Positions 14,064 to 24,557 are shown, numbered from the stretch's first letter. The stretch is DNA of 64,000 nucleotides from Desulfarculus baarsii DSM 2075 (GCF_000143965.1 NC_014365.1:1949501-2013500); one strand, 5' to 3'. Notes: generated by a model from the letters alone, not told the origin. Numbers and translations are program-made.

Positions 14064-14092
14064 TTGACAGGCCATGGCCCCCAGGCTAATTT
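14064..14092 (+). promoter_or_regulatory. sigma70-type promoter of iorAB
   Basis: TTGACA at 14064-14069 and TAATTT at 14087-14092 are separated by exactly 17 bases. The transcript would have a ~200-base leader before the iorA ATG at 14296. Confidence 0.6.
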
Positions 14093-14176
14093 CAAAGACT
14101 ATCCCTTGGCGCGTTCGTCGGTGGCAATGGGGCGTTTTCAGGCAAAACAGCCGCTTCCCGACGCCAGCGCCTAAGA

Positions 14177-14194
14177 CCATATTACCCAATATGG
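14177..14194 (+). promoter_or_regulatory. inverted repeat in the iorAB leader
   Basis: CCATATT-ACCC-AATATGG is a perfect 7-bp inverted repeat in an otherwise GC-rich leader, about 85 bases after the -10 box. It could be an operator or a leader hairpin; no known riboswitch consensus was recognised around it. Confidence 0.45.
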
Positions 14195-14295
14195 CCGCCA
14201 GCGGGCAGCCAATGTGCGGCGGGGGCCGCCTTTTGCCTGGCGAAAGACGCCCCGCGCGTGGGCCGACTGGCCGACCAAAGCCGGAGAAGCAAACC

Positions 14296-16194
14296 ATGGA
14301 CGATCTGCTTTCGCCAAAAGGCGGGGCCCAAAAACTGTTGCTGGGCAACGAGGCCATCGTGCGCGGCGCCCTGGAGGCCGGGTTGGCTTTCGCCACCTGT
14401 TATCCCGGCACGCCATCGTCGGAGGTGCCCGACACCCTGCATCGCCTGATGCGGCAAAGCCCCGAACAGGTCAAATACCACTTCGAATATTCCACCAACG
14501 AAAAAGTCGCCCTGGAGACGGCATCGGGCGCGGCGGCGGCCGGCCTGCGCACCCTGTGCACCATGAAGCACGTGGGCCTCAACGTGGCCGCCGATCCGCT
14601 GATGACCCTGGCCTACAGCGGCGTGCGCGCCGGCATGGTCATCCTCACCGCCGACGACCCGTCGCTTTTTTCCAGCCAGAACGAGCAGGACAACCGTTAC
14701 TACGCCCGCCAGAGCGGCCTGCCCATGCTCGAACCGGCCGATCCGGCCCAGGCCAAGGCCATGACCAAATACGCCATGGAGCTGAGCGAACAGCTGGAGA
14801 CGCCGGTGCTATTGCGCACTACCACCCGCGTCAACCACACCCGCGGCGCGGTGGGCCTGGACGATCTGCCCGAGGTCAAGACCAAGGCCCATTTCGTCAA
14901 GGAGCCCACCCGTTTCGTTGGCGTGCCCGCGGTCAGCCGCAACCTGCACCTGCGCCTTTTGCGCATTTACGAAAAGGCCCAGGCCCTCTCCGAGGCCTCG
15001 CCCTTCAATAGCGTCAAGGGCAAGGGCCGCCTGGGCGTGGTCGCCTGCGGCGTGTGCGTGGCCTACGTGGCCGACGCCGTCAAGGATCTGGACGCGGCGG
15101 GCCAGATCAAAATCTTCAACCTGGGCTTCAGTTGGCCCTTGCCCGAGAAAAAACTGGCCCGCTTCCTCAAAAGCGTCGACCAGGTGCTGGTGGTCGAGGA
15201 ACTGGAGCCCCTGGTCGAAAACGCCCTGCGGGCCATCGCCCAGGAAAAGGGCATAGCCGTCAAGATCAGCGGCAAGACGCCCGGGGCCATCCCGGCCGTT
15301 TCGGTGGACGTGCGCGCGCCCGAGGTCTTTACCAGGGCCTATGAATACAACCCCCGCCTGGTGCGCCAAACTATCGCCAAGGCCTTCAAACTAAAAGATA
15401 ATTCTCCGCCAGTGCTCGACCTGTCCGACAGGCCGGCGCTGCCGGGCCGGCCGCCAAACCTCTGCGCCGGCTGCCCCCACCGGGCCACCTACTTCGCCGT
15501 CAAGCAGGCCGTGGGGCCCGAGGCCGTCTTCACCACCGACATCGGCTGTTACACCCTGGGCATGCTGCCGCCCATCAGCATGGCCGATTACCTCATCTGC
15601 ATGGGCAGCTCCGTCAGCAGCGCCGGCGGCATCGCTCGCGCCACCGACCAAAAGGTCGTGGCCTTCATAGGCGACAGCACATTTTTCCACTCGGGCATCA
15701 CCGGCCTGGTCAACGCCGTGCACAACCGCCACAATTTCACCCTGGTCATTTTGGACAACGGCACCACGGCCATGACCGGCCACCAGCCCCACCCCGGCGT
15801 CAGCCAGGGCTTGGCCGACGACAAAACCCACGTCGACATCGAAAAGCTGGTGCGCGGCCTGGGCGTCGAGCACGTGACCACGGTCAAACCCTTCAAGGTG
15901 GCCGCCTCGGTCAAGGCCATCAAGGAGGCCGCCGACTACCCCGGCGTCAGCGTGGTCATCAGCCGCGAGATCTGTCCGCTCTACGGTCGCCGGGTGGCCC
16001 CGCGCGGCCGCAAGCCCTTCCGCGTCGATCCGGGCAAGTGCAAAAATCATCGCGACTGCATCAACACCGTGGCTTGTCCGGCCTTTTACATCGCCGGCGA
16101 TCAGCCGGCCATCAATGCGTCCCAGTGCATCGGCTGCGCCCTCTGCGCCCAGATTTGCCCGGAAAACGCCATCACGCCGGTCAAGGAGGCCTGA
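14296..16194 (+). CDS. iorA: indolepyruvate ferredoxin oxidoreductase, alpha subunit
   Basis: 632 aa. Catalyses CoA- and ferredoxin-dependent oxidative decarboxylation of aryl pyruvates, or in reverse their synthesis; in several anaerobes IorAB also activates aryl acids. The pyrimidine domain starts LLGNEAIVRGALEAG and carries YPGTPSSEV; the thiamine-pyrophosphate domain has CAGCPHRATYFAVKQ and IGDSTFFHSGITGLVNAVHN. Two C-terminal 4Fe-4S motifs are CKNHRDCINTVACPAF (the variant spacing typical for IorA) and CIGCALCAQICPENA. ATG 14296 has GGAG 9 bases upstream; the frame upstream is leader sequence. Followed by iorB after 2 bases. Ferredoxin reduced here can feed the neighbouring Rnf complex. 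Confidence 0.95.
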   Translation: MDDLLSPKGGAQKLLLGNEAIVRGALEAGLAFATCYPGTPSSEVPDTLHRLMRQSPEQVKYHFEYSTNEKVALETASGAAAAGLRTLCTMKHVGLNVAADPLMTLAYSGVRAGMVILTADDPSLFSSQNEQDNRYYARQSGLPMLEPADPAQAKAMTKYAMELSEQLETPVLLRTTTRVNHTRGAVGLDDLPEVKTKAHFVKEPTRFVGVPAVSRNLHLRLLRIYEKAQALSEASPFNSVKGKGRLGVVACGVCVAYVADAVKDLDAAGQIKIFNLGFSWPLPEKKLARFLKSVDQVLVVEELEPLVENALRAIAQEKGIAVKISGKTPGAIPAVSVDVRAPEVFTRAYEYNPRLVRQTIAKAFKLKDNSPPVLDLSDRPALPGRPPNLCAGCPHRATYFAVKQAVGPEAVFTTDIGCYTLGMLPPISMADYLICMGSSVSSAGGIARATDQKVVAFIGDSTFFHSGITGLVNAVHNRHNFTLVILDNGTTAMTGHQPHPGVSQGLADDKTHVDIEKLVRGLGVEHVTTVKPFKVAASVKAIKEAADYPGVSVVISREICPLYGRRVAPRGRKPFRVDPGKCKNHRDCINTVACPAFYIAGDQPAINASQCIGCALCAQICPENAITPVKEA

Positions 16195-16196
16195 AT

Positions 16197-16790
16197 ATGA
16201 AAACGTTTCGTATTGTCTTCGTGGGCGTGGGTGGCCAGGGCAATCTTCTGGCCAGCAACCTGTTGGGCCAGGCCGCGTTGGATTCGGGCGTGCCGGCGGT
16301 GGTCAGCGAGATTCACGGCATGGCCCAGCGCGGCGGTGTGGTCGAATCGGCGGTGCTGCTGGGCGGGGCGCGCAGCCCCATCGTCAGCACGGGCGAGGCC
16401 GACGCGCTGGTGGCCTTCGAACCGGCCGAGGCCCTGCGCCTGTTGGACAAGGCCGGGCCCAAGTCGCTGGTCATCACCAGCCTGCGGCCCGTGCCGCCCT
16501 TCACCGTGACCACCGGCCAGGGCAAGTATCCCGACCCGGCGGCGGCGGTGGATTATCTGCGCGGCAAGGTGGCAAGGGTCATCGCCTTTGACGGCCAGGA
16601 GCTGGCCGAGCGGGCCATGAACCCGCTGAGCCTGAACATGGTCATGCTGGGGGCGCTGTTTGCCGGGGCCAAGTTGCGCGTGCCGGTGGAGGCCATGAAA
16701 AAGATCATCCGCGCCCAGACCAAGCAGCGTTTTGTCGAGGCCAACCTGCTGGCCTTTGATTTGGGCTATCAGGCGGCGGCCGCCGCCTAG
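16197..16790 (+). CDS. iorB: indolepyruvate ferredoxin oxidoreductase, beta subunit
   Basis: 197 aa gamma-type domain of 2-oxoacid:ferredoxin oxidoreductases. It begins FRIVFVGVGGQGNLLASNLLGQAA (the GVGGQG signature) and continues with SEIHGMAQRGG(VVES) and NPLSLNMVMLGALF. It forms the heterodimer with IorA. The start at ATG 16197 is two bases after the iorA stop and preceded by AAGGAGG, giving tight coupling. A terminator follows at 16811. Confidence 0.95.
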   Translation: MKTFRIVFVGVGGQGNLLASNLLGQAALDSGVPAVVSEIHGMAQRGGVVESAVLLGGARSPIVSTGEADALVAFEPAEALRLLDKAGPKSLVITSLRPVPPFTVTTGQGKYPDPAAAVDYLRGKVARVIAFDGQELAERAMNPLSLNMVMLGALFAGAKLRVPVEAMKKIIRAQTKQRFVEANLLAFDLGYQAAAAA

Positions 16791-16886: not shown

Positions 16887-17513
16887 CTAAAGACCGCCAA
16901 TCGCTCGTCCATCTCGGCGGATGCGCCAGAAATGATACAGCGCCAGCCCCAGGCACAACAGCGGCAGCGCCAGGCAGTGCAGCACGTAAAAGCGCAGCAG
17001 CGCGGCCGGGCCCAACTCCGGCCCGCCCAGCAGCACGCCGCGCAACATCTCGCCCACCAGCGGGATTTCGGCCAGCAACCCGGCCACCACCGCCGCCGCC
17101 GCGCGGGTGGCCCCGTCCCAACGCAGCACGTAGCCGCTCAGGTCCATGGCCAGCGTCAGGGCCAAAAGCCCCAGGCCCACAAGCCAGTTGGCCGCCCGCG
17201 GCGGCAGATGGGCCCCCGTGGCCAAGACCCTGGCCATGTGCAGCAGCACCGCCAGGACCATGCCCTGGCCGGCCAGATAATGCACCCGCCGGAAAAACCA
17301 GGCGAACGGTAGGTCGCCGGCTTCCTGGGCAAAGAAGTCGGCCGCGCCCGTTGGCGTGGGCGTGTAATGGAACATCAACAGCAATCCGCTGCCGGCCAAG
17401 GCCAGAAAAAGCAAAAACGCCACCCCGCCCAGGCAAAACGTGTGGCCAACGCGGATGCGTCCCTCGGGCAGGCGCGGCGGATGCAGGTGCTCCAGAAAAC
17501 CGGGGCCGGCCAT
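16887..17513 (-). CDS. cytochrome b (N-terminal four-helix part) of a bc-type complex
   Basis: 208 aa. The protein has four hydrophobic helices with the spacing of the cytochrome b/b6 N-terminal half. Haem-ligand histidines are visible in helix II (RRVHYLAGQGMVLAVLLHMARV, 14-residue spacing) and helix IV (YVLHCLALPLLCLGLALYHFWRIRRDG). The quinone-side loop carries the usual GYVLRWDGAT. The protein ends after helix IV like cytochrome b6, so the remaining C-terminal helices must come from a separate subunit, probably the product at 18077. Three bases downstream of the Rieske gene on the same strand, hence co-transcribed. Predicted role: quinol oxidation at the membrane, electrons passing to multihaem cytochromes encoded nearby. 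Confidence 0.88.
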   Translation of the reverse strand: MAGPGFLEHLHPPRLPEGRIRVGHTFCLGGVAFLLFLALAGSGLLLMFHYTPTPTGAADFFAQEAGDLPFAWFFRRVHYLAGQGMVLAVLLHMARVLATGAHLPPRAANWLVGLGLLALTLAMDLSGYVLRWDGATRAAAAVVAGLLAEIPLVGEMLRGVLLGGPELGPAALLRFYVLHCLALPLLCLGLALYHFWRIRRDGRAIGGL

Positions 17514-17516
17514 GGC

Positions 17517-17996
17517 TCAGGCCTTCAGGCGCTGGCCGGGCCGGGCGGGCCGGGCCGGATCGACGATCAAAGCGCCACTGGCGGCGCGGCGCACGTCCAG
17601 GATATCCAGGCCGCGCTGGGCCGGGCCGGCCAGCAACGCGCCATCGGCGGCAAAGCTGGAGCCGTGGCACGGGCAGACAAAGCGCCCCAGATCGGCCCGC
17701 CAGGTCGGCTGGCAGCCCAGGTGGGGGCATTTCAGGCGCAGGGCGAAAAAACCAGCCTCGTCGCGGGCCAAGGCCACCCCGCCCCGCGCGCGCGCCTGGC
17801 CCACGGCCGGCCAATCAGCGGCGTCGAAGCTCACCGGCGCGGGCGGACGCGCCTGGCCCTGACCGCCGCCAACCAGGCGCAGAGCCATGGCCAGGCCCAA
17901 GCCGGCGGCCGTGGCCAGCATGGCCCAGGTCGCGCCCACGGCCCAGGCCAACCAGCGCCGGCGCGGCGGATTATCCACGGATTGGCTTTGCTTCAT
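17517..17996 (-). CDS. Rieske 2Fe-2S protein
   Basis: 159 aa from the ATG at 17996 (a TTG two codons earlier is less likely). A single N-terminal membrane helix (WLAWAVGATWAMLATAAGLGLAMAL) follows RRR, resembling a Tat-type anchor. The cluster-binding motifs are complete: CPHLGC and CPCHGSSF, with the disulfide-forming extra Cys in place. The soluble domain would face the periplasm. The gene precedes the cytochrome b gene by three bases and lies divergent to the subunit-IV-like gene, 80 bases away. Confidence 0.93.
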   Translation of the reverse strand: MKQSQSVDNPPRRRWLAWAVGATWAMLATAAGLGLAMALRLVGGGQGQARPPAPVSFDAADWPAVGQARARGGVALARDEAGFFALRLKCPHLGCQPTWRADLGRFVCPCHGSSFAADGALLAGPAQRGLDILDVRRAASGALIVDPARPARPGQRLKA

Positions 17997-18040
17997 GATC
18001 AAACAATCTAACCCCGCGCGCCGGCCCGCGCAACAGAGGC

Positions 18041-18069
18041 TTTGCCAGGGCGGCCGGCCTTGCTATGAT
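18041..18069 (+). promoter_or_regulatory. promoter of the subunit-IV-like gene (TTTGCC-N17-TATGAT)
   Basis: TTTGCC at 18041-18046, 17-base spacer, TATGAT at 18064-18069. The ATG at 18077 follows after 7 bases with no Shine-Dalgarno, as at rseC and pgpA. Confidence 0.5.
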
Positions 18070-18076
18070 TGAGCCC

Positions 18077-18448
18077 ATGAAAGCGCCCATGTCCACCCGT
18101 GAGACCCTGGCGGCCAAGGAAGGCCTGGCCGCGTTGCTCTGCCTGGCCCTGCTGACGGCCCTGGCCGTGGTCTATCCGCTGGAGTCGGTGGTCGAGGCCG
18201 CCGAAGGCCAGGCCAAGGCCCCGTGGATTTTCGTGGGCCTGCAACAGCTTTTGCGGCCGTTGCCGCCGCTGTGGGGTGGCCTGCTTTTGCCAGGCGCGGC
18301 TTTTTGTTTTCTGGCCTGGCTGCCCTGGCTGAGCCGTCGGCCACCCCACGCCGTCCCCGCCCTTGGCCGGCCCGGCTTTGCCGAACTGGCGGCCTGGGCC
18401 ATCCTGGCCGGCTGGGCGCTGCTGACGGCCTACGGCTTTTTTGTCTGA
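18077..18448 (+). CDS. cytochrome b C-terminal (subunit IV)-like membrane protein
   Basis: 123 aa with three membrane helices (EGLAALLCLALLTALAVVYPL; LWGGLLLPGAAFCFLAWLPWL; FAELAAWAILAGWALLTAYGFFV). The segment between helices 1 and 2, KAPWIFVGLQQLLRPLPPLWGG, aligns by eye with the PEWYF...ILRxxPNKLGG region of PetD/cytochrome b C-terminal halves. It would complete the cytochrome b encoded at 16887-17513. The gene is on the opposite strand from the cytochrome b and Rieske genes and its 3' end overlaps the convergent multihaem cytochrome gene by 19 bases. The canonical PEWY is degenerate (APWI). The ATG at 18077 is preferred because it fits the promoter; an upstream ATG exists at 18065. Confidence 0.7.
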   Translation: MKAPMSTRETLAAKEGLAALLCLALLTALAVVYPLESVVEAAEGQAKAPWIFVGLQQLLRPLPPLWGGLLLPGAAFCFLAWLPWLSRRPPHAVPALGRPGFAELAAWAILAGWALLTAYGFFV

Positions 18449-20223
18449 GCCTCGGCCGCGCGGGCGTCCAGGTCGCGCAGCAGCCATTTTATATATTGCT
18501 TGCCGGGCCTTAGCAGCTTGCGCAGCAGCTCGCGCGCAAAGGGCCGCGCCCCTTCGACGAGCATGACCTGTTGAGGCCGTCCCGCCAGATCGACGATCTT
18601 GGTCCAGCCGCCGTCCATGGCCAGGCCCTCGGCCCGGGGCAACCACAGCTCCGGGGCCAGGGCGGGCGGCTGATTTGGTTGGCCATCGCGCAAAAAAGTC
18701 AGCCCAAGGCCCAAGGCCATGGCGTTGCCGTGGCAATCGGCGCAGCCCACCGTGGGCCGGCGGGTGTTGTGCGGTCGCCAGGGGGCCAGGCCCAGGCCCG
18801 GCGAGGGGATTTGGCCGGCAACGCTGGGTCGGCCGTTTTCATCCAGAATCGTCACCACGTATTGAAAACGCGGCCGCAGCAAAAACGTGCGGCCGTCGGG
18901 GCCCTGGCCGTGGACGCGCCACTCGCGCCTCCGGAAAAACGGCGACAAGACCCACACGCCGTCGCGCGGGCGGCCGCTTAGCAGATCCAGCGCCTTGGGC
19001 GCTTGGGCCTGATCGGCCGCCCAGGCCATGGCCCAGAGCTGATGATCGCCCTGGGCGGCGATATCGCGCCAGCGGGCCGGACCGGGCCTGGTGTCCAACA
19101 AAACCTGCAAGCCCCAGACCGCCGGATTGGCCGCGCCGTGGCAGGCGTGGCAGGCCAGGCGCTGGTGGCCCGGGGCCAGGTGGGCCGCCGGCGCATCGGG
19201 GCCGTTGGCCAGGCTGGGCGCGACGAGCGTTTTGCCGCTTAGCTTGCCGCGCACCAGCGCCGCGCCGTTTTTGATGCTGACGTTGGTCATGGCTTGGTCG
19301 TGGCTGGTGCGCGCCTGGCGCGGCGGCTGGCCGGGCCGGCCGTGGCAGGACTGGCAACGCAGGCCCACGTGCAAAAGCGCCGCCTGGCGGATCTGACCAT
19401 CGCCCATGACCTCGGCCCGCACGTGGCAGTCGATGCAGGCCAGGCCGGCCTGGTGATGCAGATCGGGCCGGGTTTCGCGCCAGACGCGGCCGTTGAAGAG
19501 CTTGGGCCGCGCCGGGTCGATTTGCGCGAAATGGGCCGTGAAGTGTTCGTCGGCCGGCGTCAGGCCCACGTATTCGGCCCCGGCCCCGCAATCGCTGGCG
19601 TGGCAACGCAGACACTGCGCCACGGGCGGGCTCTTGCTCAGGCGGTGGCCGTGGATTTTACGGCCCTGGTCGTCGGTGGGCGCGTGGCAGGCCGCGCAAC
19701 CGGCCGAACGCCTGGCCCCGTCCATGTCCGCGCCGGGGCTCCACAGATGACAGCGCAGGCAGCGCCGCCGCAGCAGGTCGTCCACGGCCTGGCCGCCGGC
19801 AACGTCGGGCTGGGGCAGTTGCGCCAATGGCCCGACCTTTCGCGTGGCCCACAGCGGGGCCGGGCTGGGCTGGGCCCCCCACAGATAGCGCGTCTGGTTG
19901 ATCAAGCCGGCGTTGGTGGCCATGGGCGAGCGCCGCACCTTTTCCGGCCAGCCGGGATGACAGCGGCCGCAGGTTTGGTCGGCCGCGTCCAGGGTCGAGG
20001 GGTTGGCGCGCAGGCCTTGGTGGGCCTGGGGCAGGGCCTTGGCCGTGGCGTCGCCGCCGTGGCAAAAAAGGCAATCCGGGACTTTGCCTTGGGCCGGGCT
20101 TGGCGGCATGGGCGAGACAAAGCCCTGGTGGCAGCCCAGGCAACCGTTGGCCGTGGCCGGTCCGGCCCAGCAGATGGCCAGGGCGATCAGGGCCGTCAGG
20201 ATGACTGTCTTCGCGGCGCTCAT
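18430..20223 (-). CDS. secreted decahaem c-type cytochrome
   Basis: 597 aa. An N-terminal signal peptide (TVILTALIALAICWAGPATAN) precedes ten CxxCH haem-binding motifs: CLGCH, CLFCH, CGRCH, CLRCH, CAACH, CLRCH, CIDCH, CQSCH, CHACH, CADCH. The first six are in the N-terminal half; a ~150-residue stretch rich in beta residues (RRREWRVHGQGPDGRTFLL...) separates the last haem. The start at ATG 20223 overlaps the stop of the preceding 11-haem gene (ATGA). It is clearly a paralogue of that protein: the segment around CIDCH...EVMGDGQI...RCQSCHGRPGQPP matches it closely. Predicted periplasmic or membrane-associated electron carrier working with the adjacent Rieske/cytochrome b subunits. Confidence 0.88.
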   Translation of the reverse strand: MSAAKTVILTALIALAICWAGPATANGCLGCHQGFVSPMPPSPAQGKVPDCLFCHGGDATAKALPQAHQGLRANPSTLDAADQTCGRCHPGWPEKVRRSPMATNAGLINQTRYLWGAQPSPAPLWATRKVGPLAQLPQPDVAGGQAVDDLLRRRCLRCHLWSPGADMDGARRSAGCAACHAPTDDQGRKIHGHRLSKSPPVAQCLRCHASDCGAGAEYVGLTPADEHFTAHFAQIDPARPKLFNGRVWRETRPDLHHQAGLACIDCHVRAEVMGDGQIRQAALLHVGLRCQSCHGRPGQPPRQARTSHDQAMTNVSIKNGAALVRGKLSGKTLVAPSLANGPDAPAAHLAPGHQRLACHACHGAANPAVWGLQVLLDTRPGPARWRDIAAQGDHQLWAMAWAADQAQAPKALDLLSGRPRDGVWVLSPFFRRREWRVHGQGPDGRTFLLRPRFQYVVTILDENGRPSVAGQIPSPGLGLAPWRPHNTRRPTVGCADCHGNAMALGLGLTFLRDGQPNQPPALAPELWLPRAEGLAMDGGWTKIVDLAGRPQQVMLVEGARPFARELLRKLLRPGKQYIKWLLRDLDARAAEAQTKKP

Positions 20224-22388
20224 CGCAGGGCCTTTTCCTCGGCCAGGCGGTGCTTCGCGGCCAGATCGCCGCCGGGGCCGATGCGTTGGCGGGCCTTGGC
20301 CGGGTCTTGCAACACCGGGTCGTGGGGCTTGAAGTGGCAAGGCAGGCAGCGGCCAAAGGCCAGGGTTCGGCCAATCTCGGCGGCGTTGAGCGGCCGCGCG
20401 CCTTGATGGGTTTGATCCTGCAAGGGCCGGCCGTCCACGGTGGTCAGGGCGGCCCAACCGTGGTTCAGGCCGCTTTGCGCGGGGGCGTCCAGCGACTCTG
20501 GCCCCGCGCCGTCCAGGGGCATGGGGCCGTCGCCCAGGCCCAGGGCGCGGGGGTTTTGATGGCAGGCCTGGCAGGGCCGCACCTCCAGCCTGGTGGTGTG
20601 GGGGGCGAGGGGCGTGCTGACCACGGTCCCGCCGGCTGGCCCGCCCTTTTGGCGGGTCATCCATTGGCCGGGCAGGGGCTGGCCGTTTTGGTCCAATACG
20701 CTCAGGCTCACCTGGCAGCCGGGCGTGAAGGGCGTGATCTGGCCCCGCGAATCCACGCCCAGGATCGGCGCCAAAAAACGATAGACGTCGCGGCGTTCGG
20801 ACCAGACGCCCGGCCGGGGGCCGTCGGCGGCAAAGTCCCACATCTGGCCGCCTTGGCCGCGCAGATCGTGGCAGCCAAAGCATTGTGGCGTCCAGCGGCT
20901 GTGGCAGGCCTGGCAGCTCAGGCGCTGATGGCCGGGCAGATTGTGCCTGGGGTCGGCGGCGATAATCGCGGCTTGGTGGGTCTGGCCGGGGTTGGTCTTG
21001 GAGCGCAGCAGCACCTTATCGCCGATCAGGCGGGCGTTGCTCAGGGGCCGGCCCTTGACGCCGAGCACGAAATCGTCGCCGGTCGGCGTGGGCGCGTCTT
21101 TCAGCGGGCCGTGGCGCAGTTCGAAGGCCGCGGCGCCATCGGCCGGACCGGTTTGGGGCGGCCGGCCCGGCCCGCCGTGGCAAGTCTGGCAGCGGATTTC
21201 GGTCTGAAAACGCATGCGTTGATAAATGCGGCCATCGCCCATGATCTCGCGGGAGGTGTGGCAGTCGATGCAGCCCAGGCCTTTTTCGGCGTGGATGTCG
21301 GGCAAGAGGCTGCGCAGGGCGCGGCCGCCGCTGAGGTGTTGGCGCGGCTGGCCGTCGGGCCAGGGGACGCGGCCGCTTTCGTCTTCCATCCAGCCGCGAT
21401 AGTTCAGGCCGATGCGGCCGGAGCGGTTGTGACAGCGGCGGCAGTTTTCCTCGGGCGGGGTGGGCAGGAGGCGGTGATAGGCCGCATGACCCGGTTCGTC
21501 GTCGGCGATGGCCGCGTCGGCCCCCAGATAGCGCCCGGATGCATGGCGCATGCCGTGGCAGGCGGCGCAACCCGCGCCGTGGACGCTGTGGCCGTCGGGC
21601 CGGCTGGCCCGCAGGTGGCAGCGGGCGCAGAACTTGCGCCAGTGGTCGTTGGCTAGGCCGGCGAAATCCAGGCTGGCCGGATCGGCGGCGTCGATCTTGC
21701 GCAGGACGGCCACGGTCTGGCCGTCGCTTTGGGCCGGGGCCTCGGGGTCGCTGACGGCGGCGGTGGCCAGGCTGGCGGTGAAATCGCCCTGGGCCCCCCA
21801 CGAGACGCGCAGGCTGGTCAGCACGCCGGTCATGGTGCTCATGATCGTGCGTTCGACCCTGGTCACGGCGTTGGCCGCCGGCTCTTGCCGGCCCTCGTGA
21901 CAGGCCGCGCCGGCCATGGTCTGGCCGCAAGAGGCCCTGGCCTGGCCCAAGTCGCTGGGATTGCGGCCGCGCAGGCCCTGATGGGCGCTTTGCTTGGTCA
22001 GGCCCAGGCCGTTGCCGCCGTGACAGGCCACGCAGCCCACGGCCTCGACGGGGTGGGACGGGCTGATCTGCTCGATGCCCCGGTGGCAGCTCAGGCAGCG
22101 CTCGGGCCGGCCGCTGACGTGGGGTCGCGTCTCGATGACTCGAGGCGGCTCGTCGGCCAGGGCCTGGCCCCGTTGCCGGGCCAGCGTTGGCGGCGCGCCC
22201 ATGGCCAGCAGGCGGCGCTCCAGGCGTTGGCCGCGCCGGGCGTTGATGGCGGCGATTTGCTCTTGCCAGGGGCGGTCGTTTTCTCGTAGCCAGGCCAGGG
22301 CCACGGCGGCCAGCAGCAGGGCCGCGGCCAGGGCGTAGGCCAGGGCCCAGATGGCGCGCGAAGTTGGTTTTGACTCGACCGCGGCCAT
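20220..22388 (-). CDS. membrane-anchored multihaem c-type cytochrome (11 CxxCH)
   Basis: 722 aa. An uncleaved N-terminal helix (LAYALAAALLLAAVALAWLRE) anchors a large periplasmic domain with eleven CxxCH motifs: CLSCH, CVACH, CARCH, CAACH, CRRCH, CIDCH, CQTCH, CQACH, CFGCH, CQACH, CLPCH. A twelfth candidate site is altered: where the downstream paralogue has CGRCH, this protein has CGQTMAGAACH (21897-21929), a CX8CH arrangement. The gene heads a two-cistron operon, ending in a four-base overlap with the decahaem gene. Likely electron exit route of a bc-type quinol oxidoreductase; partner and acceptor are unknown. Its start lies 48 bases from the divergent gene at 22437. Confidence 0.88.
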   Translation of the reverse strand: MAAVESKPTSRAIWALAYALAAALLLAAVALAWLRENDRPWQEQIAAINARRGQRLERRLLAMGAPPTLARQRGQALADEPPRVIETRPHVSGRPERCLSCHRGIEQISPSHPVEAVGCVACHGGNGLGLTKQSAHQGLRGRNPSDLGQARASCGQTMAGAACHEGRQEPAANAVTRVERTIMSTMTGVLTSLRVSWGAQGDFTASLATAAVSDPEAPAQSDGQTVAVLRKIDAADPASLDFAGLANDHWRKFCARCHLRASRPDGHSVHGAGCAACHGMRHASGRYLGADAAIADDEPGHAAYHRLLPTPPEENCRRCHNRSGRIGLNYRGWMEDESGRVPWPDGQPRQHLSGGRALRSLLPDIHAEKGLGCIDCHTSREIMGDGRIYQRMRFQTEIRCQTCHGGPGRPPQTGPADGAAAFELRHGPLKDAPTPTGDDFVLGVKGRPLSNARLIGDKVLLRSKTNPGQTHQAAIIAADPRHNLPGHQRLSCQACHSRWTPQCFGCHDLRGQGGQMWDFAADGPRPGVWSERRDVYRFLAPILGVDSRGQITPFTPGCQVSLSVLDQNGQPLPGQWMTRQKGGPAGGTVVSTPLAPHTTRLEVRPCQACHQNPRALGLGDGPMPLDGAGPESLDAPAQSGLNHGWAALTTVDGRPLQDQTHQGARPLNAAEIGRTLAFGRCLPCHFKPHDPVLQDPAKARQRIGPGGDLAAKHRLAEEKALR

Positions 22389-22436: not shown

Positions 22437-22835
22437 ATGAACGAGCAGTTGAAATCGCTGGCCCAGGCCATGCGCGCCGAACTGGAGCGCATCCCCAGGG
22501 AGATGCTCCAGGAGGACGTGGCCCGCCGGGCGTTGATCCGCGCCCTGGCCGGGGCGGTGGAGGCCATGGGGCTGTTGCCGCTGATGGGCTGGAAGCCGCC
22601 GCGCTCGACCCGCGAGGCCATCGACCTGGTGGGCGTGGACGCGGCCAGCGCCCCGCCCCGGGTGGAGATGGCCTTCGTGGTCGACCCGCTGGTGGAGCTG
22701 CCCCGGCTCAAGACCCTGGAGTGGCTGGACTGCCCCCACAAGGTGGTGGTCAGTTTCTCCAGCCGCGCCGACAAGGTGGCCCAGACCAGCTTTTTTTTGG
22801 GGCCGCAGCACATCCACCTCAAGCTTTACGACTGA
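22437..22835 (+). CDS. hypothetical protein, 132 aa
   Basis: A strong AAGGAG lies 8 bases before the ATG at 22437. The protein has an amphipathic helical N-half (NEQLKSLAQAMRAELERIPREMLQEDVARRALIRALAGAV) and a beta-rich C-half ending HIHLKLYD. No signal peptide or membrane helix; probably cytosolic. I do not recognise the family. It diverges from the multihaem cytochrome operon and shares its 48-base promoter gap, but nothing in the protein suggests a redox role. Confidence 0.7.
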   Translation: MNEQLKSLAQAMRAELERIPREMLQEDVARRALIRALAGAVEAMGLLPLMGWKPPRSTREAIDLVGVDAASAPPRVEMAFVVDPLVELPRLKTLEWLDCPHKVVVSFSSRADKVAQTSFFLGPQHIHLKLYD

Positions 22836-23185: not shown

Positions 23186-24373
23186 TTAGGTCAGGGTCAG
23201 CTTGTCGGTTTCCTCGTTCCAGGCCATGATCGCCCACCACGCCAGCATTACCGCCGCGCTGATGATGATGGCCCAGAAATAGCCGCCGACCAGGTTGGGC
23301 AGGAACAGGAAGCCCTTGCCCCACGCCTCGGCGACCTCGTTGGTGAAGACGTATTGCTTGAACAGGCTGTTGCTCAGGGCGAAGCAGATCACCACGATGA
23401 TCAGTTTGACATGGCCCTCGCCGGCCCGCCACAACGAGCCCGAGCCGCAGCCGCCCGAAAGCAGCATGCCCATGCCGAAGATCACGCCGCCCACCAAGCC
23501 GCCGATCCAGTGATGATAAGTGTAGATCATCTCCAGGTCGGAGTTGTACCACTTGACGAGCATGAAGCCGATCACCGAGATGATCACGCTCAGCGCCACC
23601 GCCCGCGTGGCCTCGGCCTCGCCGGTCATGAAGGGGTCGCGGAAGGCGCGCACGAAACAGAAGCGGCAACGCTGGATCACCAGGCCGATGCCCATGGCCA
23701 GCATCATCAAGATGGCCTGGTCGGTGTAGGCCCGCAGGCTCAGACAATAGGCGTAGCCGATCAAAAACAGGAAAAACGCGCCGCCCAGCCAGGGTTGAAC
23801 CTTGTCCCAGTCCACGCCGCCTTGGCCGGAGGAGGCCTGCTTTTGCTTGGGCGGCTTGGTGGTGATGTGCTCGATCTCCCACAGCAGGTATTTCAGGCCG
23901 ATCATCGCGCCGACGATCAGGCCGATCATCATGGCGAAGCCGCTGACGCTGCCGGCGGCCAGGGCCGTGTAGAAGCCGCCCACATTGCAGCCGCCAGCCA
24001 TCACCGAACCCACGCCCATCAGCACGCCGCCGACCACGCCCTTGCCCAACTCCAGGCCCGGGGCCATGCGCAAGGCGAACTGCCGCGACAACAGCGCCGA
24101 ACCGAACGCGCCAAAGAGCAGGCCCCAGGTCAGGATGGCCGAGTCGCTAAGGAACAGGGCGTGACGGGGCGCTTGGTCGTAAAGGCCCACGCCGTAGAAA
24201 AGCCAATCGGCCCAGACCCGCAAGCCGCCGACCACGCCCCACGGCCTGGTGGCGACCATGCACAGCGTGCCCAGCAGGGCCAGCAGAATGCCGCCGACCC
24301 ACAGGGGCCAGTTCTTTTCGAACAGGGCGGCGTAGCCTTCCTTGAATTTCTCGACCATAACGCTTTCGGACAT
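23186..24373 (-). CDS. YeeE/YedE-family sulfur-compound transporter
   Basis: 395 aa, about ten membrane helices in two homologous halves. Each half carries the conserved glycine/cysteine motif of the family: SVMAGGCNVGGFYTA and LLSGGCGSGSLWRAGEG, the cysteines that pass thiosulfate through the pore in characterised TsuA proteins. A further Cys pair (QRCRFCFVRAF) lies between. Start ATG 24373 has GGAGGAG 5 bases upstream; frame upstream is not coding. It precedes the tusA-like gene by 53 bases and is probably in one operon with it. A promoter (TTGAAT-N17-CATAAT) lies about 100 bases upstream. Confidence 0.9.
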   Translation of the reverse strand: MSESVMVEKFKEGYAALFEKNWPLWVGGILLALLGTLCMVATRPWGVVGGLRVWADWLFYGVGLYDQAPRHALFLSDSAILTWGLLFGAFGSALLSRQFALRMAPGLELGKGVVGGVLMGVGSVMAGGCNVGGFYTALAAGSVSGFAMMIGLIVGAMIGLKYLLWEIEHITTKPPKQKQASSGQGGVDWDKVQPWLGGAFFLFLIGYAYCLSLRAYTDQAILMMLAMGIGLVIQRCRFCFVRAFRDPFMTGEAEATRAVALSVIISVIGFMLVKWYNSDLEMIYTYHHWIGGLVGGVIFGMGMLLSGGCGSGSLWRAGEGHVKLIIVVICFALSNSLFKQYVFTNEVAEAWGKGFLFLPNLVGGYFWAIIISAAVMLAWWAIMAWNEETDKLTLT

Positions 24374-24472
24374 TATCTCCTCCGGGGTTGCCGCGGTTTG
24401 CTTTTCGTGGGATCGGGCGACGCCGTTGGCGCGGCGCGTGGCCGGACGCGTCCGCTTGATGTCGCTTATCGG

Positions 24473-24501
24473 ATTATGCCTTGCGCCAAGCGATGATTCA
24501 A
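24473..24501 (-). promoter_or_regulatory. promoter of yedE-tusA (minus strand)
   Basis: On the minus strand TTGAAT (24501-24496) and CATAAT (24478-24473) are 17 bases apart. They lie in the 220-base divergent gap and point at the transporter gene. Confidence 0.5.
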
Positions 24502-24527
24502 CCCGCAAAAAACACTTAAGCGCGCGG

Positions 24528-24557
24528 TTGACACGGGCGGTGGCCACGGTTTATCAA
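24528..24557 (+). promoter_or_regulatory. promoter of the TPR protein gene
   Basis: TTGACA at 24528-24533 and TATCAA at 24552-24557 with an 18-base spacer, 37 bases before the ATG at 24594. Confidence 0.5.

What the first reader, a model, noticed from the sequence alone, without database searches (positions are those of the whole stretch)
16887..22388. Split bc-type complex with two multihaem cytochromes in place of cytochrome c1
Cytochrome b (N-half), Rieske, subunit-IV-like protein and paralogous 10- and 11-haem cytochromes are packed together, but on both strands and with no cytochrome c1. The subunit-IV-like gene is divergent from its partners. The set could be a quinol-oxidising complex feeding extracytoplasmic acceptors through a haem wire.
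Basis: partly seen in the sequence, partly recalled or inferred. Interest (0 to 1): 0.65.

Follow-up and report, generated by a model that had tools for sequence, protein, structure and literature searches.

The report
Quinol-oxidising complex with multihaem partner cytochromes
A sulfate reducer carries a b6f-like respiratory complex in which the usual small cytochrome is replaced by two large multihaem cytochromes; it is a variant of a gene set known from Geobacter, and one cytochrome carries a conserved cysteine, replaced by selenocysteine in many relatives, that may be its active site.

Summary
Cytochrome b6-like protein, Rieske protein, inverted subunit-IV-like gene and two paralogous multihaem cytochromes lie at 16887-22388; no cytochrome c1 is detectable in the genome. 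The set is not new in kind: it is a divergent relative of the Geobacter extMNOPQ 'bc complex' (published 2010, 2018). The arrangement, with subunit IV inverted, is conserved through Desulfarculaceae and several other Desulfobacterota. Where relatives carry the ExtM-type cytochrome elsewhere, an orphan Rieske-cytb-subunit IV operon with no c-type cytochrome beside it was found in 10 of 10 genomes inspected, so the cytochrome is very likely the acceptor of the complex. What is new: the larger cytochrome (MHC2/ExtM) has one non-haem cysteine, C558 in PGCQ, kept throughout the full-length family and encoded by in-frame UGA, with a SECIS-like hairpin, in about 18 relatives. MHC2 is thus probably a catalytic redox enzyme, not just a wire; MHC1 lost that residue. 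MHC2 probably also has a twelfth haem site (CX8CH). Best model: a menaquinol-oxidising b6f-like core feeding a membrane-anchored Cys/Sec multihaem reductase for a sulfur, selenium or metalloid compound. The substrate is inferred; no contact between subunits was shown.

The parts
16887..17513 (-). cytochrome b6-type subunit (N-half of cytochrome b, 208 aa), ExtP-like; His78/92/179/194 and Cys27 align with b6 residues 86/100/187/202 and 35
17517..18002 (-). Rieske [2Fe-2S] subunit (ExtO equivalent); CPHLGC...CPCHGS boxes, Phe in place of the Rieske tyrosine
18003..18064 (.). short intergenic region between the divergent Rieske and subunit IV genes; promoter-like site on the + strand at 18042-18069
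   Evidence: consensus match only
18065..18448 (+). subunit-IV-like protein (127 aa), APW[I/V/L]F in place of PEWY; its 3' end overlaps the MHC1 3' end
18430..20223 (-). MHC1: secreted 10-haem cytochrome (597 aa), paralogue of MHC2 without the PGCQ cysteine
20220..22388 (-). MHC2: membrane-anchored ExtM-like cytochrome (722 aa), 11 CXXCH plus a conserved CX8CH (C154...C163-H164), and non-haem Cys558 in PGCQ
22437..22835 (+). conserved 132-aa protein of unknown family, divergent from MHC2 in Desulfarculaceae (neighbour)
23186..24547 (-). YedE/TsuA-like sulfur (selenium) transporter, conserved neighbour

Best explanation
The genes encode a b6f-like menaquinol-oxidising complex: b6-type cytochrome b (two haems b plus a likely haem ci), subunit IV and a Rieske protein. 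Its electron exit is not cytochrome c1/f but the membrane-anchored, probably 12-haem cytochrome MHC2, with the periplasmic 10-haem MHC1 as a second electron carrier. Quinol is oxidised at the Qo site, one electron goes by the Rieske cluster to the haems of MHC2/MHC1 and one recycles through the b haems. Electrons reach a site in the C-terminal half of MHC2 where Cys558 (Sec in many relatives) takes part in reducing a sulfur, selenium or metalloid species in the periplasm. Shown: gene set, cofactor ligands, co-inheritance, Cys/Sec exchange. Inferred: quinol oxidation, the physical complex, direction of electron flow, catalysis at Cys558, the substrate.
For: Cofactor ligands of cytochrome b6 and Rieske are all kept. 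MHC2 is an ExtM relative (E 6.7e-121). Co-inheritance in 40 relatives: 14 both, 1 MHC2 only, 0 cytochrome b only, 25 neither. In 10 of 10 inspected genomes in which ExtM-type cytochromes lie away from cytochrome b, there is a Rieske-cytb-subunit IV operon with no c-type cytochrome gene recognised beside it; in total 40 of 41 ExtM-bearing genomes tested have a bc-type cytochrome b. In Desulfosporosinus and some unnamed Desulfobacterota the order is Rieske-cytb-subIV-ExtM-like on one strand. PG[C/U]Q is kept in the full-length MHC2/ExtM family; about 18 distinct sequences have UGA there, the genomes searched have tRNA-Sec, and a SECIS-like hairpin follows UGA but not the Cys codon (mean z -2.5 against 0.1, p 2e-6). 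A YedE-type sulfur transporter is a conserved neighbour, and a rhodanese lies beside cytb in Desulfocarbo.
Against: No structure: the AlphaFold model of MHC2 is unusable (pLDDT 43), so neither the distance from Cys558 to a haem nor any subunit contact was tested. One genome (G321) has the cytochromes and no detectable cytochrome b; 16 further genomes were not tested with the sensitive model. MHC1 has no direct functional clue. The subunit-IV motif lacks the catalytic Glu of PEWY. The substrate rests on neighbours and on the extI phenotype in Geobacter only.
Confidence: 0.55

Rival explanations
1. A b6f-like complex whose multihaem cytochromes only pass electrons on to the periplasmic cytochrome pool or to extracellular acceptors; Cys558 is a haem ligand or structural residue.
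For: Butler et al. 2010 (PMC2825233) proposed a quinol-oxidising bc complex with several cytochromes for the homologous Geobacter cluster; the many haems suit a wire; MHC1 lacks the cysteine and would be pure wire.
Against: A structural residue would not be expected to be replaced by Sec in about 18 relatives; no ExtI porin in the four Desulfarculaceae genomes searched, although other porin conduits were not searched for.
Confidence: 0.27
2. The complex runs in the other direction: MHC2 oxidises a reduced sulfur compound at Cys558 and the Rieske/b core passes electrons uphill to menaquinone.
For: Cysteine-assisted sulfur oxidation by cytochromes is known in other families (own knowledge); YedE and rhodanese neighbours.
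Against: Rieske/b complexes normally oxidise quinol; the Geobacter relative is linked to selenite/tellurite reduction through extI (PMC5877670).
Confidence: 0.1
3. The Rieske/b core and the cytochromes are separate systems that merely sit together.
For: In Desulfocarbo (G003) the cytochrome pair is 22 kb from the Rieske/b genes, and in several genomes they are wholly unlinked.
Against: Strong co-inheritance, linkage in many lineages in different orders, and Rieske/b operons without a c-type cytochrome beside them where unlinked.
Confidence: 0.08

Closest known systems
Geobacter extHIJKLMNOPQS cluster (ExtM 12 haems, ExtN 10 haems, ExtO Rieske, ExtP cytochrome b, ExtQ), PMC2825233 and PMC5877670
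   Same: Same set and order M-N-O-P; b6-type cytochrome b, 12-haem and 10-haem cytochromes, PGCQ motif, ExtKL selenoprotein present in the same genome
   Different: No ExtI porin in the genome, no ExtKL in the cluster, subunit-IV gene inverted between MHC1 and Rieske, ExtKL unlinked beside arsenic-type genes, MHC1 closer to ExtM than to ExtN, expanded third haem motif
Anammox (Kuenenia) Rieske/cytochrome b complexes with hexa- or octahaem cytochromes (PMC12954380)
   Same: b6-like four-helix cytochrome b, separate subunit IV, multihaem cytochrome in place of cytochrome f
   Different: Those have NAD(P) oxidoreductase subunits, and one has an HAO-like octahaem protein; kinship of their cytochromes to ExtM was not tested here
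Cytochrome b6f complex
   Same: Split cytochrome b plus subunit IV, haem ci cysteine, 15-residue step between the helix-D histidines, Rieske boxes
   Different: No cytochrome f/c1; PEWY replaced by APW[I/V/L]F
ExtKL and other multihaem selenoproteins in a 2026 catalogue (PMC13188914)
   Same: Multihaem c-type cytochromes with Sec
   Different: No ExtM-type entry was found in a text search of that catalogue; the window protein itself has Cys

Membership tests
Geobacter Ext system (ExtMNOPQ) | ExtM equivalog score (NCBIfam NF040943, cut-off 800 bits) | tested here: not met
   MHC2 404.5 bits, MHC1 183 bits; true ExtM in L216 1084 bits
Geobacter Ext system (ExtMNOPQ) | linked genes for two multihaem cytochromes, Rieske and b6-type cytochrome b in the order M-N-O-P | tested here: met
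   only Q differs in place and strand
Geobacter Ext system (ExtMNOPQ) | ExtI porin | tested here: not met
   none in G000, G002, G010, G003; found in G100 and G161
Geobacter Ext system (ExtMNOPQ) | ExtKL selenoprotein | tested here: met
   in the genome, unlinked, 414 bits with one in-frame UGA
Geobacter Ext system (ExtMNOPQ) | 12 haem sites and PGCQ in ExtM | tested here: inconclusive
   PGCQ at 556-559 and 11 CXXCH met; the twelfth site is a conserved CX8CH whose haem attachment is untested
Rieske/cytochrome b (bc1/b6f) complexes | four haem-ligand histidines in cytochrome b | tested here: met
   H78, H92, H179, H194 invariant and aligned to b6
Rieske/cytochrome b (bc1/b6f) complexes | Rieske cluster ligands | tested here: met
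   C92, H94, C110, H113 invariant
Rieske/cytochrome b (bc1/b6f) complexes | PEWY-type Qo motif in the C-half | tested here: not met
   APW[I/V/L]F in all ten aligned
Rieske/cytochrome b (bc1/b6f) complexes | cytochrome c1 or f | tested here: not met
   no PF02167 in the genome; cytochrome f not searched separately
Rieske/cytochrome b (bc1/b6f) complexes | quinol oxidation coupled to c-type cytochrome reduction | not testable with these tools
   needs biochemistry
Sec-containing form of ExtM (proposed) | in-frame UGA with downstream SECIS-like hairpin | tested here: not met
   window MHC2 has Cys at this site; met in about 18 relatives

The most novel reading that the evidence does not exclude
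The full-length ExtM/MHC2 family is a new class of Cys- or selenocysteine-dependent multihaem reductase that is built directly onto a b6f-like quinol-oxidising core, so that one complex oxidises menaquinol, conserves energy and reduces a terminal chalcogen or metalloid substrate; the Sec form is an undescribed selenoprotein family.
Probability: 0.35. Interest if true: 0.75.

Novelty: new variant of a known kind. Interest (0 to 1): 0.5.

Why it matters
The Geobacter cluster has been a candidate quinol oxidase since 2010 without a mechanism. The Cys/Sec residue gives a concrete, mutable candidate active site, and the Rieske/b operons with no c-type cytochrome beside them give independent support that ExtM-type cytochromes are the partner of these complexes. 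It would extend energy-conserving bc complexes with unusual partners to sulfate reducers and link them to sulfur, selenium or arsenic chemistry.

Tried and rejected
AlphaFold of MHC2 with 14 relatives gave pLDDT 43, so no fold search was run and the second structure job was not used. A profile search of MHC2 against PDB sequences found nothing. The NCBIfam model named ExtO (iron-sulfur subunit) matches the ExtN cytochrome, not the Rieske protein, and was not used as evidence; the ExtP cut-off is missed even by a bona fide Ext cluster. Promoter hits in the intergenic region are consensus matches only.

Full report
WHAT IS THERE. The window lies in a single-contig genome of 3,655,731 bases; its size and its kin (Desulfarculaceae) fit Desulfarculus baarsii, which is an inference from memory. 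The five genes of the finding are at the stated coordinates. Pfam gives Cytochrome_B (E 1.2e-32), Rieske (6.9e-10) and, weakly, Cytochrom_B_C for the subunit-IV gene (0.0022, just below the curated cut-off); the same protein aligns with the C-half of fused cytochromes b in Chloroflexota, Bacteroidota and others. MHC1 has 10 and MHC2 11 CXXCH motifs. The genome has one bc-type cytochrome b, no cytochrome c1 and one other, lone Rieske hit.

THE CORE IS b6-LIKE. The best solved relative of the cytochrome b is cytochrome b6 (160 bits for 2zt9_A, against about 102 for cytochromes b of bc1 complexes). The invariant His78, His92, His179 and His194 and Cys27 align with b6 residues 86, 100, 187, 202 and 35. 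From established knowledge of b6f, these are the ligands of the two haems b and the covalent anchor of haem ci/cn. The Rieske ligands and the serine of box II are invariant; phenylalanine replaces the tyrosine in 9 of 10 sequences, which by general knowledge goes with a lower potential and suits menaquinol. Subunit IV has APW[I/V/L]F where PEWY is expected.

KINSHIP TO A KNOWN SYSTEM. NCBIfam places MHC2 with ExtM (404 bits; cut-off 800), MHC1 less closely with ExtM, and cytochrome b with ExtP. ExtM (12 haems), ExtN (10), ExtO (Rieske), ExtP (cytochrome b) and ExtQ are part of extHIJKLMNOPQS of Geobacter; loss of extI lowers selenite and tellurite reduction (PMC5877670). Butler et al. 2010 had already described this set as a putative inner-membrane bc complex with several multihaem cytochromes (PMC2825233). 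The window set keeps the order M-N-O-P but has its subunit-IV gene inverted between MHC1 and Rieske. It lacks ExtI in the genome, and its ExtKL, a selenoprotein gene with in-frame UGA, lies elsewhere beside genes that look like ArsR, Acr3, thioredoxin and CcdA (read from sequence; the thioredoxin-CcdA-ExtKL order is conserved in relatives). Among 22 related genomes ExtKL occurs in 8 of 10 that have the complex and in 0 of 12 that lack it; the genomes are related, so the p-value of 1e-4 is only descriptive.

CONSERVATION OF THE ARRANGEMENT. MHC2-MHC1-(subIV inverted)-Rieske-cytb is found in about ten Desulfarculaceae loci (a few cut by contig ends), in two Syntrophobacteraceae records and in three further lineages (L043, L047, L056). 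The divergence of the subunit-IV gene is therefore an old arrangement, not an accident. In Desulfocarbo indianensis (G003, L038) the cytochrome pair is 22 kb away but the divergent subIV-Rieske-cytb block is intact. In Desulfosporosinus and in one Nitrospirae MAG the order is Rieske-cytb-subIV-cytochrome on one strand, with a 7-haem cytochrome related to the N-terminal part of MHC2 and lacking the PGCQ region. In several other unnamed Desulfobacterota genomes it is Rieske-cytb-subIV-ExtM on one strand.

DO THE CYTOCHROMES BELONG TO THE COMPLEX? In the own genome and its relatives (40 in all), cytochrome b and MHC2 orthologues are both present in 14, MHC2 alone in 1 (a fragmented assembly), cytochrome b alone in 0, and both absent in 25. 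Across a sample of 297 Desulfobacterota, 57 have an ExtM-type cytochrome. Of 41 tested by one or another search, 40 have a bc-type cytochrome b; the exception is G321, and 16 were not tested with the more sensitive model. Ten genomes in which the ExtM-type cytochrome is not beside cytochrome b were inspected: all ten carry a Rieske-cytb-subIV operon elsewhere with no multihaem cytochrome recognised next to it (one contig has an unrelated five-motif ORF 4 kb away). These complexes need an electron acceptor, and the ExtM-type cytochrome is the common candidate. This is genomic evidence; contact was not tested.

A CONSERVED CYS/SEC SITE. MHC2 has 25 cysteines: 22 in CXXCH motifs, C154 and C163 in a conserved C-X(n)-C-H motif, and C558 in PGCQ. 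In the ExtM/MHC2 alignment the cysteine of PGCQ is kept in every full-length member, as PCQ in five genomes of two families. In about 18 different sequences from other Desulfobacterota the codon is UGA, reading on in frame through two further haem motifs. The genomes of that kind that were searched have tRNA-Sec, clearly so in all but one (G237). Hairpins follow the UGA (mean z -2.5, n 18) but not the Cys codon (mean z 0.1, n 27; Mann-Whitney p 2e-6; the sequences are related, and one of the 27 Cys entries is a spurious match). A 2026 catalogue of prokaryotic selenoproteins lists ExtKL and an octahaem family among cytochromes, but a text search for cytochrome, heme and multiheme found no ExtM-type entry (PMC13188914). 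By general knowledge Sec usually replaces catalytic, redox-active cysteines. MHC1 has lost the residue (compare) and its clade is separate from MHC2 in the tree (support 86/69 for the MHC1 clade), so MHC1 is best read as an electron carrier.

A TWELFTH HAEM SITE. Ext clusters have CX2CH, many others CX4CH, and Desulfarculaceae CX6 to CX9CH at the third haem site; both cysteines and the histidine are invariant in 15 sequences. In the window it is CX8CH. Haem attachment there is a prediction.

MECHANISM. Best-supported: menaquinol oxidation by a b6f-like core, with MHC2 (predicted N-terminal membrane helix) taking electrons from the Rieske protein, MHC1 sharing or passing them, and a reaction at Cys558 in the C-terminal half. 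That the C-terminal half is a separate catalytic module is consistent with its absence from the 7-haem partner of Desulfosporosinus. The substrate is inferred from conserved YedE-type sulfur/selenium transporters beside the set in Desulfarculaceae and beside related loci L042, L214 and L215, a rhodanese beside cytb in Desulfocarbo, and the Geobacter selenite/tellurite phenotype of extI.

LIMITS. The AlphaFold model of MHC2 is unusable. Genomes are related, so co-occurrence p-values are descriptive. Some MHC regions in the Python screens were read from stop to stop and may be longer than the genes.

Noticed in passing
L222, L221, L229, L233-L247: ExtM-type multihaem cytochromes with in-frame UGA at PGUQDF and a SECIS-like hairpin: an apparently unlisted selenoprotein family.
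   Followed up: yes
window 20220-22388, codons 154-164 of MHC2: Third haem motif with variable spacing (CX2CH in Ext clusters, CX4CH, CX6 to CX9CH in Desulfarculaceae and others), all ligands invariant; may be a non-canonical haem attachment site.
   Followed up: partly
G000:C1:2944132-2945298 (L249 9109 onward): ExtKL selenoprotein gene beside ArsR, Acr3, thioredoxin and CcdA-like genes, a hint of metalloid chemistry; the order is conserved in relatives.
   Followed up: partly
window 22437-22835: 132-aa protein without Pfam or NCBIfam match, conserved (54-64% identity) and divergent from MHC2 in Desulfarculaceae.
   Followed up: no
NCBIfam NF040968 and NF040969: The model named ExtO iron-sulfur subunit matches the ExtN cytochrome, not the Rieske protein; the ExtP cut-off is above the score of ExtP in a bona fide Ext cluster.
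   Followed up: partly
L048-L055, L062, L068, L071, L073-L075, L078, L085: Desulfosporosinus, one Bacillota MAG and one Nitrospirae MAG have a 7-haem cytochrome related to the N-terminal part of MHC2 with a Rieske/cytb/subIV set.
   Followed up: partly
L255-L264: Rieske-cytb-subunit IV operons with no c-type cytochrome gene recognised beside them, in genomes that carry ExtM-type cytochromes elsewhere.
   Followed up: yes
window 14074-16790: Two-gene set read as indolepyruvate ferredoxin oxidoreductase (from sequence, not searched), next to the cytochrome b gene on the other strand.
   Followed up: no
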